A stretch of DNA of 64,000 nucleotides, taken from contig CAMUML010000003.1 of assembly GCA_947089855.1 (NCBI GenBank), positions 60,459 to 124,458 on the forward strand, written 5' to 3'. The position numbers and the translations under genes are program-made. Positions 8,110 to 63,880 of the stretch are shown in pieces. Position 1 is the stretch's first letter. Each line of letters opens with the position of its first letter. The notes beneath the pieces are model-generated. The model made no database searches and was not told the origin of the DNA. It saw nothing but the letters and a program-made list of their open reading frames with translations. Source of the stretch: an uncultured Eubacterium sp. (GTDB lineage: Bacteria; Bacillota; Clostridia; Lachnospirales; Lachnospiraceae).

Positions 8110-8687
8110 GTGCTTGAGCGTGGATAGGTGGACAAGGGTGGCTTCCCGGACGCCGCAACCAGAAGCGGGGGCTTTCCGGCTGCGGCTGGCCTTTGGATAC
8201 GGGTATGCATGATGTATGGCCAACGTTTTGCAATTTAAGCAGATGAAAAGGTGTAGTTCACCACTTTTCATTGTTAGGATGCAAGCCGCTTCATAGATAA
8301 CATACAGCTGCATCCAGGCTCTGTGGGTTTCTGGCTATGCTTGCGGAGATTTATAAAATCTACAATTAGAAGGCCATGCAAACAACCGTCCGTTTACCCT
8401 GCACAGCCGCATCCACAAGCTGGGGGTTTCCGGATATGCTTGCGGAGAAATGCTGGAACCTCTTAGCATTCTGTCGATGTCAGAATTTCCGGGCAGGGAT
8501 GCCCGGAAAAGGGGATTGCCGCCACGGACGGCGGGTCAATCCCCGGTTCGTCCGGCTACGTTAAACTTGGCACAGAATGCTTAGAGGTTCCTGCATTTCG
8601 CAGCGGCATAGCCGGAAACCCCCAGCTTGTGGATGCAGCGTCCGGGAGGCCATTCCCCTCAGTTTTTTATGCCGCAGCATAGGTTCT
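8110..8687. other. Gene-free intergenic stretch between ftsZ and spoIIGA
   Basis: No plausible gene lies between the ftsZ terminator and the spoIIGA promoter; the short frames here have no SD and no recognisable product. The stretch holds several inverted repeats. The motif GGGGCTTTCCGGC occurs here (about 8167) and again at about 8732, each time inside a small palindrome. The large palindromic element at 8409-8636 fills the right half. Confidence 0.7.
8409..8636. repeat. Large palindromic element, type C
   Basis: Arms 8409-8433 and 8612-8636 are perfectly complementary over 25 bp, and pairing continues imperfectly inward to about 8473 and 8573. The centre carries two further hairpins: TTTCCGGGCA/TGCCCGGAAA at 8486-8509, and GGGGATTG...CAATCCCC at 8511-8544, followed by GGTTCGT. 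The inner edge (AGCATTCTG ... CAGAATGCT) resembles the inner edge of the elements at 28365 and 60256. A truncated relative lies at about 39030-39120. Confidence 0.8.
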
Positions 8688-26800: not shown

Positions 26801-26876
26801 GCCGGAAGATGGGCCGGTGGGCTGGCTTTTGGCCCGTACTCCAGCCTACCGCCCACCCAACCGGCATCTTTCCAGC
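26801..26876. repeat. GC-rich imperfect palindrome between convergent plsC and aroA
   Basis: A segment starting GACGCCGGAAGATGGGCCGG pairs imperfectly with the complement near CCGGCATCTTTCC; the 3' arm carries an extra block of about 10 nt. It begins about 40 bp after the plsC stop. The start motif GGACGCCGGA is shared with elements at 28365, 48859 and 60256. Confidence 0.55.
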
Positions 26877-28168: not shown

Positions 28169-28364
28169 AGCTGTATCTCCTTTCTGATTCGTATTGTTTT
28201 ATAATTTTTTTCAATGAATGAAATTTTAAATTTTGCTTTTTTAATGAATGCAATTCTAAATTTGCTTTTTTAATCAATGGTATTCTTATATTTCTGTTTA
28301 ACAATCCCTTACGGCGATAACAAGACAGTGTATCCTGCAATTTACGTAAAGCCTGAGAAAACCA
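28169..28364. repeat. AT-rich gap with about 29 bp direct repeats
   Basis: Three degenerate copies of about 29-30 bp (28213-28242, 28243-28271, 28272-28299) share the pattern AATGAATG-AATT-TAAATT-TGCTTTTTT. No gene is supported; frames through them have no SD or family match. The minus-strand promoter of aroA may lie next to them (TTGAAA and TATAAA near 28200-28215). Confidence 0.55.
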
Positions 28365-28603
28365 GCCGGAGGAGGGGGCGTTGGGCTGGCTTCCTGCGAC
28401 GTTGGAAGAATGTTTAGAATCCCTTAGTATTCTGCAAGGAAAACAGGCGGCGAAGCCGAAGCGGCAGCTGTAGCTGCTGGCGTAAGCCAGGGCGGACAAG
28501 GTGCCGCGTCCGTCCGGTATCACTGCCTAAATGCAGAATACTTAGGGCTTCTTAACATTCTGGAGTAGGAGCAGGAAGCCAGCCCAACGCCCCCTCCTCC
28601 GGC
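28365..28603 (-). repeat. Large palindromic element, copy A
   Basis: Arms 28365-28397 and 28571-28603 are perfectly complementary over 33 bp. Inside, AGTATTCTGC ... GCAGAATACT adds a second inverted repeat. The core carries smaller hairpins in GGCGGCGAAGCCGAAGCGGC. Read on the minus strand it is about 85 percent identical by eye to the element at 60256-60488, including a one-sided tail beyond the palindrome (GGCTTTACGT). It starts 16 bp after the tyrA stop codon. Confidence 0.88.
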
Positions 28604-28618
28604 GTCCTCCCCTACACA

Positions 28619-60200: not shown

Positions 60201-60255
60201 GCTGGTTTTTGGCTTCCTGCTTCTGCTGTAGAGGGTGGTGGGTAGGCAGGACGCT

Positions 60256-60488
60256 GGATGGAGGGGCGGTGGGCAGGCTTCCTGCTCCTGCTACAGAATG
60301 TTAAGTAGCCCTAAGTATTCTGCATATATGTAGTGGCACCGGACGGGCGCGGCACCTTGTCCGCCCTGGCTAACGCCAGCAGCTACAGGTGCCGCTTCGG
60401 CTTCGCCGCCTGGTTTCCTAGCAGAATACTAAGGGCTACTAAACATTCTTCCAACGTCGCTGGAAGCCTGCCCACCGCCCCTCCATCC
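60256..60488 (+). repeat. Large palindromic element, copy B
   Basis: Arms 60256-60282 and 60462-60488 are perfectly complementary over 27 bp; inner repeats AGTATTCTGC / GCAGAATACT also pair. The core contains GTGCCGCTTCGGCTTCGCCG-type hairpins. It is homologous to 28365-28603 read in reverse, with the same one-sided tail, and starts 56 bp after the trpB stop. Differences between the copies in the arms are matched on both sides of each palindrome. Confidence 0.88.
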
Positions 60489-60502
60489 GGCTGGTTATCG
60501 CA

Positions 60503-60956
60503 GGCTTTACGTTAAAGTACAACCAGCCTGCGCTGTAGCTCCATTCGGTTAATTTCTAAAGGCTTAAAGTAAAAGCACAAACCAGCCCGCCGAAGCTTCA
60601 TCGGGTTAATTTCAAAAGGCTTAAAGTAAAAGCGCAAACCAGTCTGCTGTAGCGTCACTCGGTGGTTTCAAAAGGCTTAAAGTAAAAGCACAAACCAGCC
60701 CGCCGAAGCTTCATCGGGTTAATTTCAAAAGGCTTAAAGTAAAAGCATAAACCAGCCTGCCGAGGCTTCATCGGGTTAATTTCAAGAGGCTTAAAGTAAA
60801 AGCATAAACCAGCCCACCGAAGCTCCATTCGTTAATTTCTATAGGTTTTAAGTATAAGCACAAACCAGCCCACCGAAGCTTCATTCGTTAATTTCTATAG
60901 GTTTTAAGTAAAAGCCCAAACTAGCCCGCCGAAGCTCCGTCGGGTTGATTTCTACA
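60503..60956 (+). repeat. Tandem array, eight units of about 57 bp
   Basis: Units start at 60503, 60561, 60618, 60674, 60731, 60788, 60844 and 60900 (spacing 56-58). Each has GGCTTAAAGTAAAAGC, AAACCAGCCCGCCGAAGC and a palindromic core around GAAGCTTC. The last three diverge most (GGTTTTAAGT). Spacings that are not all multiples of three exclude a coding repeat; there are no unique spacers, so it is not CRISPR. The first unit coincides with the tail of the adjoining palindromic element. Confidence 0.9.
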
Positions 60957-61303: not shown

Positions 61304-61659
61304 GTGTCAGATTTGAAGCATGAAGTAACTGCACAACGATGGGCTGCCCTGATCAAAGAACGCATGGACAGCGACATGACCATTAAGGAATAGTGTCAGG
61401 AAAGAAATATCAAAGAGTCTCAGTATTACTACTTGCTGAGAACTCTCCGCCGGGATGAAGCTGACGCGGCGGAACAGGACTCAGAAGCTGTGCCTTTCGT
61501 GGGGCTTCTGGTTATCTGCCGGGAACAGGAATTCCAGCCGGGCAGGTCTCCAGGCTTTATCCGCAAAGGGATGTCTGCATAGGAATAACGGAATCCGCTT
61601 CTGCAGGCTTTATCGCAAAAATCATGGAGGCTGCAGCCAGCCCGTGCCTGGTGAAGTGA
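61304..61659 (+). pseudogene. IS66 family tnpA (decayed)
   Basis: GTG 61304 begins MSDLKHEVTAQRWAALIKER, typical of the small IS66 accessory protein. TAG at 61391 replaces the Trp expected before CQERNIKESQYYY, and a later frameshift is needed to reach the usual ending (GFIAKIMEAAA). It overlaps tnpB by 4 nt (GTGA). Confidence 0.75.
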
Positions 61660-61996
61660 ATTTATACAGCTACATTTACCTGGCATACGGCTATACGGAT
61701 CTCCGCTTTGGGATAGACGGCCTGGCGCAGGCCATACAGGATCACTTTGAGCTTGATCCATTCCAGAAAGGAACCCTTTTACTGTTCTGCGGAAGGCGCA
61801 CTGACCGGATCAAGGGGCTTTTGTGGGAAGGCGACGGATTCCTCCTTGTTTAGACTGGAAGCGAGACGGTTCAAGTGGCCCCGGACAGCGTCCAAGGCCC
61901 GTGGGATTACGCCGGAGCAGTTCACATGGCTGACAGGGGCTTGCTGTAGAGCAGAAGAGCAGGATACAGGAAGTTTCGCCTAAAAGGAGATGCTGA
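61656..61996 (+). pseudogene. IS66 family tnpB (decayed)
   Basis: The IS66 Orf2 signature is clear: YGYTDLRFGIDGLAQ, DPFQKGTLLLFCGRRTDRIK and LLWEGDGFLL. A stop at about 61851 and two frameshifts split the rest (RRFKWPRTASKARGITPEQF, then GLAVEQKSRIQEVSPKR in another frame). Not functional. Confidence 0.85.
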
Positions 61997-62253
61997 CTGC
62001 TTTTTGTGCAAAACGCAGAAATTTTCAGCCTTTATCTACGGCCTGTGCCATTATCCGGCTGGAAAAAAATATTGCGTACAAATGTGTGCCGGCGGTTTTT
62101 GCGCTTAGTTTTCCTGTTTTCCCTCAAAAACTGGCCTATATAATTCCATTCCTTTATATATCGGCATTTCCAGCGATACATGCCATTGCCATTTTGACGA
62201 GAGTGCCGGTAAAAAATGCAGCACGGGCCGCTTCTTTTTGCTATAACTATGGT

Positions 62254-63880
62254 ATGGAAAAGAAGATTTATACAGCAGATGAATTGAATCATGTTGAAAA
62301 AGACGAGCTGGTCAGGATCATACTCTCACTGCAGGAAAACACTGCCCGGATGATGGAGAACCAGGATCTGGTCATGGAACAGATCGCCATCCTGCGCCGG
62401 CAGCGCTTCGGGCGGCGCTCTGAAAAAATGGACGTCATCGACGGCCAGATGAGCCTGTTTTTCAATGAGCCGGAAGCTGCAGCGGGTGAACCAGGCACGC
62501 AGGCGGAAGAACCGGAATTTGAGGAAGTTGTCATACGCAGGAAAAAGAAGAAAAAAGGAAAACGTGAAGGTGGCTTAAAAGATATACCGGTTACAGCCAT
62601 TCAGCATGAAATGTCAGAAGACGAACTGAAAGCAGCGTTCCCGGATGGACAATACAAGCGGCTTCCTGATGAAGTATATCAAAGGCTGGATTTCCACCCG
62701 GCTTCTTTTGAGGTCAAGGGACACCATGTGGCTGTTTATGCAGGCATGGATAATGAAGCCATTGTGAAAGCGGAACACTCGAAAGACCTGCTGCGGGGCA
62801 GCATTGTCACTCCTTCACTGGAAGCGGCGGTCATCAATGGAAAATATGTCAACTTCCTTCCGCTTTACCGCATGGAGCAGGAGTTTAAGTGTAACGGTGT
62901 GGACCTGAACTGCCAGAATATGGCAAACTGGATGATTCAGTGCGCGGACCGCTATCTTGCCGTTATTGTATGATTACCTGCATAAGCTGCTGTACGGATA
63001 CCATGTCCTTCAGGCTGACGAAACGTCGGTCGAAGTTTCGAAGGATGGGCGGCCTGTAGGTGCAAAGATCTATATGTGGATTTACCGCACCGGAAAATCC
63101 TATCTGGAAGCCATCGTACTGTATGAATACCAAAAAGACAGGAAAGCGGACCGCCCGGAGGAGTTCCTGAGAGTATTCCGCGGCGTGTGTGTCCCGGACG
63201 GCTACCAGACATACCATTCCCTGGAAGAAAAAACAGAGGGGCTGGTCATTGCAGGGTGCTGGGCACATGAGAGGCGCAAATACGCGGAGGCCCTGAAAGC
63301 CATAAAAGACAGGGAGGAGCGTAAGGGCACATTGGCTTGCTTATGCTTATGATGCCTTAAAGCACAGATCGGGGCAATTTATAAGCTGATAATGGGCTGG
63401 TGGGGCTGGAACCCGTTGAACGGCAGCATAGGAGGCAGTTGGAGGTCAAACCTCTGGTTGACGCTTATTTTGCATGGGTAAAAAGCATCAGGATGAAGCC
63501 CTGCCGAAAGCCCATACTTGGAACCGCATTCAATTACTCCCTGAACCAGGAGGGGTTTCTGCGGGTGTTTCTGGAAGACGGTGAAGTCCCCCCTGGACAA
63601 CAACGCAACCGAATGCACGCTGCGGGGCTTTTGTATCGGCAAGCACAACTGGAGGCTGATCGATACCGTCCGCGGGGCGAAATCCAGCGCCATAATCTAC
63701 AGCATCACTGAAACTGCGAAGGCAAATGGTTTGAAAGTCTATGACTATGTGGAGCATTTCCTGACAGAGATACCGAAACACGAAGGCGACACAGACTTTT
63801 CTTTTCTGGATGACCTGCTTCCATGGCCTCCGAATCTGCCAGAGCACTGCCGGAAATCCAATAAATATGAAGTAAAATAG
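62254..63880 (+). pseudogene. IS66 family transposase tnpC (decayed)
   Basis: The DDE transposase is spread over several frames. 62254-62973 holds the N-terminal helical and zinc-finger-side part (ILRRQRFGRRSEKMD, SLFFNEPE). 62957-63352 holds the first catalytic Asp (LQADETSVEVS) and VPDGYQTY. Later frames carry RQLEVKPLVDAYFAWVKSI and LDNNATECTLRGFCIGKHNW with the catalytic Glu, then KSSAIIYSITETAKANGL. At least three frameshifts make it inactive. Confidence 0.88.

What the first reader, a model, noticed from the sequence alone, without database searches (positions are those of the whole stretch)
28365..28603. Large palindromic elements with perfectly compensated arms, placed just 3' of tyrA and of trpB
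Copy A has 33 bp perfect arms, copy B (60256-60488) 27 bp perfect arms. The copies differ at several arm positions, yet each remains exactly self-complementary, so changes are paired. That implies selection on a folded DNA/RNA or repair-driven correction of the palindrome. Both lie in the same orientation relative to the upstream gene, 16 and 56 bp after the stop codon, and share a one-sided tail (GGCTTTACGT) and a structured core. Both host genes are in aromatic amino acid synthesis, which may be coincidence.
Basis: seen in the sequence. Interest (0 to 1): 0.8.

Follow-up and report, generated by a model that had tools for sequence, protein, structure and literature searches.

The report
Mobile repeats built on giant palindromes
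The two big palindromes are copies of a family of small, gene-free mobile DNA elements built around one or two folding modules of about 240 letters, and a catalogued RNA of unknown function turns out to be the core of the same modules.

Summary
The palindromes are real and their arms co-vary: 51 of 72 consensus pairs show two-sided changes among 56 copies. They are not 3'-end elements: over 134 copies the gene beside the outer end points toward the palindrome 56 times, away 71, absent 7. They are dispersed repeats; 43 of 45 close neighbours are divergent. A third window copy (8406-8639) holds Rfam's TwoAYGGAY "RNA" exactly between its arms; 25 of 28 TwoAYGGAY loci outside the genus also extend into arms. 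Sister species carry one or two modules between inverted repeats GTAACnGTTCAGATA; 6 of 20 such units, two of them with palindromes, have perfect 8-bp target duplications: MITE architecture with IS66/ISBst12-like ends. In seven of 12 relatives tyrA and aroA lie 9-65 nt apart; one relative has a two-palindrome unit there. Arm exceptions show no G-T excess over A-C; stem and core do. Against: 0 of 34 full copies in the window's own genome keep the terminal repeat, and no transposase is linked. Verdict: new MITE variant; observation mostly right, placement reading wrong.

The parts
28365..28603 (+). Copy A: 239-bp palindromic module (33-nt perfect arms, second stem, structured core), tail left, outer end right
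28340..28364 (+). Inner tail of A (ATTTACGTAAAGCCTGAGAAAACCA), similar in other copies
28604..28618 (+). Outer tail of A (GTCC...), runs to the end of the tyrA frame; no GTAAC terminal repeat here
28207..28286 (.). 29-bp tandem repeat, 2.7 copies, on A's tail side, between tyrA and aroA
60253..60491 (-). Copy B: same module in opposite orientation, tail right
60492..60516 (-). Inner tail of B
60502..60952 (.). 57-bp tandem array, about 8 copies, abutting B's tail; by eye the unit resembles tail plus arm start
60237..60252 (-). Outer tail of B
8406..8639 (+). Third, divergent member: 34-nt arms (94%) around RF01731; outer tail GTCCGGGAGGCCA follows at 8640-8652
8440..8606 (+). Rfam RF01731 TwoAYGGAY, 108.3 bits (gathering 43), filling the space between the arms
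26801..26876 (-). Probable remnant of another copy (arm sequences, core missing) between two convergent genes
   Evidence: partial match G000:C3:87255-87302; sequence; extent by eye

Best explanation
A and B are copies of a family of non-coding, MITE-like mobile elements. The building block is a palindromic module of about 228-280 bp (long arms, second stem, structured core). Repeat-bounded units in sister species hold one module (about 320 bp) or two in divergent orientation around a non-coding interior (about 540-790 bp). These units end in inverted repeats GTAACnGTTCAGATA and some are flanked by 8-bp target duplications, so they move, or moved, by a transposase acting in trans, most likely of the IS66 family, ISBst12 group. 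A and B themselves have lost, or never had, these ends. SHOWN: dispersal, divergent pairing, an occupied and near-empty tyrA-aroA site in different species, terminal repeats and target duplications in sister species, paired arm changes, G-T-biased exceptions in stem and core. INFERRED: the transposase; that the arms are kept matched by repair or template switching within the palindrome; that the core works as a folded single strand (DNA during movement or replication, or RNA).
For: Own genome: 18 matches covering about 200 nt or more of the query (A and B included), the others at 82-92% identity, plus fragments. Neighbouring copies within 3 kb: 43 of 45 divergent with tails inside, 2 same-strand, none convergent. 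tyrA-aroA gap: 9-65 nt in 7 of 12 relatives; 876 nt in G003, filled by a two-palindrome unit (L181 950-1186 - and 1524-1760 +); 450 nt with copy A in the window. Six copies in G008 align from one outer end to the other as one unit, three in each orientation, with differing sequence beyond. Repeat GTAACnGTTCAGATA 15-18 nt outside the palindrome and pointing inward in 22 of 22 listed matches; several loci overlap, and I count 16 distinct sites. The motif occurs 6 to 115 times in each of six genomes, reversed control 0 or 1. Of 20 units bounded by it, 6 have perfect 8-bp and 2 have 7-of-8 duplications; partners shuffled give 0.46 per round. The 676-bp two-palindrome unit L277 has AATCATTG on both sides. 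ISDge4, ISBst12 group of IS66, has ends GTGACTACTCAGCA / GTAACTGCTCAGCA and an 8-letter direct repeat (PMC12898284, passages); 8-bp repeats of IS66 elements: PMC3281130 and PMC11946415, passages. In the window's genome, fragments of the module lie with the repeat (L025 and L026; L280 and L281).
Against: 0 of 34 full copies in the window's own genome carry the GTAAC end within 110 nt; likewise 0 of 7 in G003, 0 of 6 in G005, 0 of 15 in G010, 1 of 6 in G002; it is found for 4 of 13 type I/II copies in G008 and 4 of 8 in G009. So the ends and the way of moving are not shown for A and B. A search for duplications near the outer tails of 39 pairs found 4 with six or more letters against about 1.45 expected, no clear signal. 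12 of 20 repeat-bounded units match in 5 or fewer of 8 flanking letters. The GTTAC-ended TwoAYGGAY units of G008 show no 8-bp duplication in three distinct units. IS66 transposase matches do not track the elements: none in G007, G008, G009, G010, 91 in G004, though drafts lose multi-copy IS. Of 30 IS66 loci plus the window's own, none has the repeat at both ends; one (L302) has a weak GTAAC pair; many loci may be too short to hold both ends. No copy encoding a transposase was found. Partner modules are not more alike than strangers in the core (0.860 v 0.865), and partner arm identity (0.581) does not differ from shuffles (0.591, 1712 of 5000 as low; the set holds some duplicate loci). Pairing as one inherited unit therefore rests on G008, G003 and the repeat-bounded units.
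Confidence: 0.8

Rival explanations
1. A structured RNA (sRNA or UTR element, for example a CsrA-sequestering RNA as proposed for TwoAYGGAY), copied around the genome only incidentally.
For: RF01731 is filed in Rfam as an RNA; stem and core exceptions are G-T 82 v A-C 4 cells on the + strand; a CsrA-binding hypothesis is published (PMC4333381, passages).
Against: No orientation rule to genes; arms show no wobble bias; some modules sit between terminal repeats with target duplications. Folding of single-stranded DNA would give a similar G-T bias.
Confidence: 0.25
2. A large transcription terminator or 3' stabiliser selected at gene ends.
For: A and B both have the outer end just 3' of a reading frame; where the outer gene points toward the module the distance is short (median 59 nt, against 205 where it points away).
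Against: 71 of the 127 copies with an outer gene have it pointing away; no module found at tyrA in 11 of 12 relatives; A sits between tyrA and aroA, which run in the same direction.
Confidence: 0.07
3. REP/REPIN-type or PATE-type palindromes mobilised by a Y1 (HUH) transposase acting on single-stranded DNA.
For: Head-to-head pairs, near-terminal palindromes, variable interiors and no duplication in many copies resemble REP dimers (PMC3733652) and PATEs (PMC3119063).
Against: Inverted terminal repeats and 8-bp duplications in some units; Y1_Tnp does not track the elements: G002 has no match but 22 element matches, G011 has three and no element match.
Confidence: 0.1
4. The palindromic module is an independent element or passenger; the GTAAC ends belong to a different host MITE that some modules ride in.
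For: The GTAAC end also bounds small elements without palindromes (L269 53 bp, L270 188 bp, L240 and L249 136 bp); 0 of 34 full modules in the window's genome have it.
Against: The end lies at a fixed 15-18 nt from the palindrome in all 16 distinct sites, unlike random nesting.
Confidence: 0.25

Closest known systems
Rfam RF01731 TwoAYGGAY RNA
   Same: Its model covers the inside of the third window copy; two A-type copies of the window's genome also exceed its cut-off (C38:10857-11021 and C11:70928-71093).
   Different: Rfam models only the core, as an RNA; in 25 of 28 loci outside the genus complementarity goes on beyond the model (arms of 10-38 nt). A and B themselves are not matched (A also at a loose threshold).
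MITEs with IS66-family (ISBst12 group) ends
   Same: Non-coding, multi-copy, inverted ends beginning GTAAC, 8-bp target duplications in some units.
   Different: Carry one or two palindromes of about 240 bp just inside the ends; no parent IS found.
PATEs of Haloquadratum (PMC3119063, passages)
   Same: Transposase-free, near-terminal palindromes, variable interiors.
   Different: PATEs are described without terminal inverted repeats or target duplications and related to IS605-type transposons.
REP / CGTC-tagged REP dimers (PMC3733652, outline and passages); REPINs (PMC3116915, search listing only)
   Same: Extragenic palindromes, often head-to-head pairs; by eye a CGTC-like edge outside and CCA inside.
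   Different: CGTC REPs have 8-9 bp stems and 4-5 nt loops; here arms of about 30 nt enclose a structured inside of about 170 nt.

Membership tests
MITE | Multi-copy, dispersed, non-coding | tested here: met
   in 40 pair interiors 3 ORFs were called; Pfam on two of them gave none and a transglutaminase-like domain, no transposase
MITE | Terminal inverted repeats | tested here: inconclusive
   met in sister-species units (16 distinct sites); 0 of 34 full copies in the window's genome
MITE | Target-site duplication | tested here: inconclusive
   6 of 20 repeat-bounded units perfect 8 bp, 2 more 7 of 8; none shown for A or B
IS66 family, ISBst12 group, derived | End sequence GTAA... and 8-bp duplication | tested here: met
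   against the ends quoted in PMC12898284; sister-species units only, not A or B
IS66 family, ISBst12 group, derived | A parent IS with the same ends | tested here: not met
   none among 30 IS66 loci plus the window's (many loci short); PF03050 without a match in 7 of 13 draft genomes
Rfam RF01731 | Score above the gathering cut-off | tested here: inconclusive
   third copy 108.3 bits v 43; A and B no match
REP / REPIN | Small (20-40 bp) palindrome, linked to a RAYT / Y1 transposase | tested here: not met
   modules of about 240 bp; Y1_Tnp does not track copies
PATE | No terminal inverted repeats, no target duplication | tested here: inconclusive
   both present in some sister-species units, neither found for A-type copies of the window's genome
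Terminator / 3' UTR element | Consistent position 3' of genes | tested here: not met
   56 toward, 71 away, 7 absent of 134

The most novel reading that the evidence does not exclude
The modules are not passengers but the working ends of a structure-guided mobile element: the conserved core must fold in one strand (as recalled for integron attC sites) to be recognised, while the arms are free to change as long as both change together through copying within the palindrome. TwoAYGGAY would then be a DNA end-structure mistaken for an RNA across much of a bacterial phylum.
Probability: 0.2. Interest if true: 0.8.

Novelty: new variant of a known kind. Interest (0 to 1): 0.5.

Why it matters
It gives a setting to an Rfam family of unknown function found in 45 of 299 sampled genomes of this family and 51 of 398 of this phylum, and offers a test bed for how long perfect palindromes stay perfect: many sites, paired arm changes, few one-sided intermediates. 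It also warns that paired substitutions alone do not prove an RNA: the arms co-vary strongly without an excess of G-T over A-C exceptions.

Tried and rejected
3'-end rule: rejected with 134 copies. Target duplications at the outer tails of pairs: no clear signal; they appeared only once the terminal repeats were recognised. Conserved interior as cargo: most interiors show no match to one another, except the G008 copies and nested repeats shared by some. Y1 transposase as mover: no correlation. IS66 transposase: no correlation in drafts, no IS66 locus with the same ends. 'Each pair joins two arm types' looked true by eye in several genomes but is not significant by permutation. 'Partners share a core variant' holds for 4 of 19 only. 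Two more sites searched for empty orthologues (listings cut off) showed no flank conserved on both sides, so tyrA-aroA is the only site comparison. Rfam at a loose threshold on 7 loci gave one hit, just under the cut-off. Literature searches: nothing in the listings or passages seen describes this family as mobile; 7 papers hold the word TwoAYGGAY, 5 were listed, and I saw passages of three.

Selections: regions were chosen by me from hit lists, so copy counts are not genome-wide censuses. One search kept 180 of 209 pieces (60% of length or more); one search reduced them to 134 unique; one search used 126 of 131 elements for mismatches (5 with fewer than 22 of 30 matches dropped); one search aligned 56 copies out of the unique set (93 references listed, not all 56 from that list). 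Genome scans score only part of the candidates in each genome.

Full report
What is there. Copy A (28365-28603) has 33-nt arms with no mismatch and copy B (60253-60491, opposite strand) 33-nt arms at 94%, each with 173 nt between. A third palindrome of the same plan lies at 8406-8639, and the 167 nt between its arms are Rfam RF01731, TwoAYGGAY, at 108.3 bits against a cut-off of 43. All three have GTCC just outside one arm; A and B share the tail on the other side. Copy A as single-stranded DNA folds far better than shuffles (z -12.6).

How many, and where. In the window's genome 18 matches cover about 200 nt or more of the A query, A and B included, and many more are fragments or reverse self-matches; RF01731 has 20 matches there. 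In a sample of 61 genomes, 10 have A-like matches: nine of this genus, the window's included, and one weak match elsewhere in the family. Named records with an exact core pattern are uncultured Eubacterium MAGs (16 stretches; the window's own record may be left out). No call names the family or habitat. RF01731 matches 45 of 299 family genomes (43 over the cut-off) and 51 of 398 phylum genomes (34 over the cut-off). For all 28 RF01731 loci held from outside the genus I asked whether complementarity continues beyond the Rfam ends: 25 exceed the 99th percentile of positions drawn at random from the same loci, with arms of 10-38 nt that look unrelated from locus to locus.

Placement. With a simple codon-usage gene caller, 134 unique copies have the outer-side gene pointing toward the palindrome 56 times, away 71 times, absent 7 times. 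A and B being 3' of tyrA and trpB is therefore best read as coincidence. Distances are shorter when the gene points toward the module (median 59 v 205 nt), as expected of insertions tolerated between genes.

Pairs. Neighbouring copies within 3 kb are divergent, tails inside, in 43 of 45 cases; two are same-strand, none convergent; gaps of the divergent ones run from 51 to 2370 nt. In the part's list that is shown, outside the genus, I count by eye four divergent, two same-strand and no convergent neighbours within 3 kb. Tandem arrays lie within 400 nt on the tail side for 34 of 129 copies and on the outer side for 15 of 129; B's 57-bp array is one case.

Insertion at tyrA-aroA. tyrA is found in all 12 other genus genomes. 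The gap to the next gene (aroA by recognition) is 9, 9, 12, 24, 48, 52 and 65 nt in seven of them, 150 in G005, 232 in G009, 516 in G006, and not cleanly called in G004; no module was detected there in these eleven. In G003 it is 876 nt and holds a two-palindrome unit. In the window it is 450 nt and holds one palindrome, A, with a 29-bp tandem repeat. So A is an insertion between co-directional genes; whether the window's species and G003 share one event or were hit twice is open.

Units and ends. In G008 six copies align as one unit, palindrome - interior - palindrome, three in each orientation, with conserved outer ends and differing sequence beyond. In G007, G008 and G009 a repeat GTAACnGTTCAGATA lies 15-18 nt outside the palindrome, pointing inward in 22 of 22 listed matches, which are 16 distinct sites by my count. 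The motif occurs 115 times in G009, 33 in G000, 29 in G002, 16 in G010, 10 in G007, 6 in G008, 2 in G004, once each in G005 and G001, and not in G003, G006, G011 or G012; the reversed control gives 0 or 1. Of 20 units bounded by it, six have identical 8-bp flanks and two 7 of 8; shuffled partners give 0.46 such units per round, part of it self-pairing. Of the six, L277 (676 bp) has two palindromes, L266 (320 bp) one, four have none; of the two near-misses, L263 (747 bp) has two palindromes. ISDge4 of the ISBst12 group has ends GTGACTACTCAGCA and GTAACTGCTCAGCA and an 8-letter direct repeat (PMC12898284, passages); IS66 elements are listed with 8-bp repeats (PMC3281130; PMC11946415; passages). 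I therefore read these units as MITEs with IS66/ISBst12-like ends. Against: 0 of 34 full copies in the window's genome have the end, nor any of those examined in G003 (7), G005 (6) or G010 (15); 1 of 6 in G002, 4 of 13 type I/II in G008 and 4 of 8 in G009 do. In the window's genome only fragments lie with it (L025, L026). The IS66 transposase has no match in several element-rich drafts, and no IS66 locus examined has these ends.

Arms and core. In 56 aligned copies, 51 of 72 consensus pairs show double changes. In the arms 1539 of 1622 cells (95%) are Watson-Crick, the rest A-C 26, G-T 19, other 38; second stem G-T 22, A-C 1, other 19; core G-T 60 (44 from a single pair), A-C 3, other 10. By number of pairs concerned: arms G-T 14, A-C 13; stem 10 v 1; core 8 v 3. 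Over 126 copies and 3780 arm positions the exceptions include G-T 55 and A-C 64; 57 of 131 copies have 30 of 30 matched arm positions. An RNA helix would favour G-U over A-C on its own strand, so the arms look corrected at the DNA level, while the inside looks folded on the + strand, as RNA or single-stranded DNA. Cells share ancestry, so these are counts, not probabilities.

What it works like (inferred). A trans-acting transposase moves the repeat-bounded unit; the palindromes can fold in single-stranded DNA; copying between arms keeps them matched and can spill into tandem arrays and longer palindromes (one copy, L011, has outer-tail sequence on both sides). Whether the core helps movement, is a transcribed RNA (the published CsrA idea, PMC4333381, passages) or protects the palindrome is open.

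Novelty. MITEs, REP dimers (PMC3733652, outline and passages) and PATEs (PMC3119063, passages) are known; REPINs (PMC3116915) I saw only in a listing. A MITE class with giant structured palindromes, and the placing of TwoAYGGAY in it, I did not meet in the searches named in Tried and rejected; the library holds open-licence papers only.

Noticed in passing
window 61455-63880: Broken IS66-family genes (TnpB_IS66, LZ_Tnp_IS66 and DDE_Tnp_IS66 matches in two of the frames; further DDE matches) close to copy B's tandem array, near the contig end.
   Followed up: partly
L085 3353-3517: Another repeat of about 165 bp between two palindromes, with matches in G001, G004, G005, G006, G008 and G009.
   Followed up: no
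L269, L270, L240, L249: Small elements (53-188 bp) with the same GTAAC ends and perfect 8-bp duplications but no palindrome.
   Followed up: partly
L087, L088, L126, L135, L083 interiors: A shared repeat of about 122 bp inside several interiors, in both orientations.
   Followed up: no
L011 2427-2665: A copy with outer-tail sequence on both sides, as if one end had been copied onto the other.
   Followed up: no
L256 near 1018: GTAAC motif followed by a sequence that, from memory, resembles part of a group II intron.
   Followed up: no
G004: One genus member with 54 Y1_Tnp and 91 IS66 matches but only two A-like matches.
   Followed up: no
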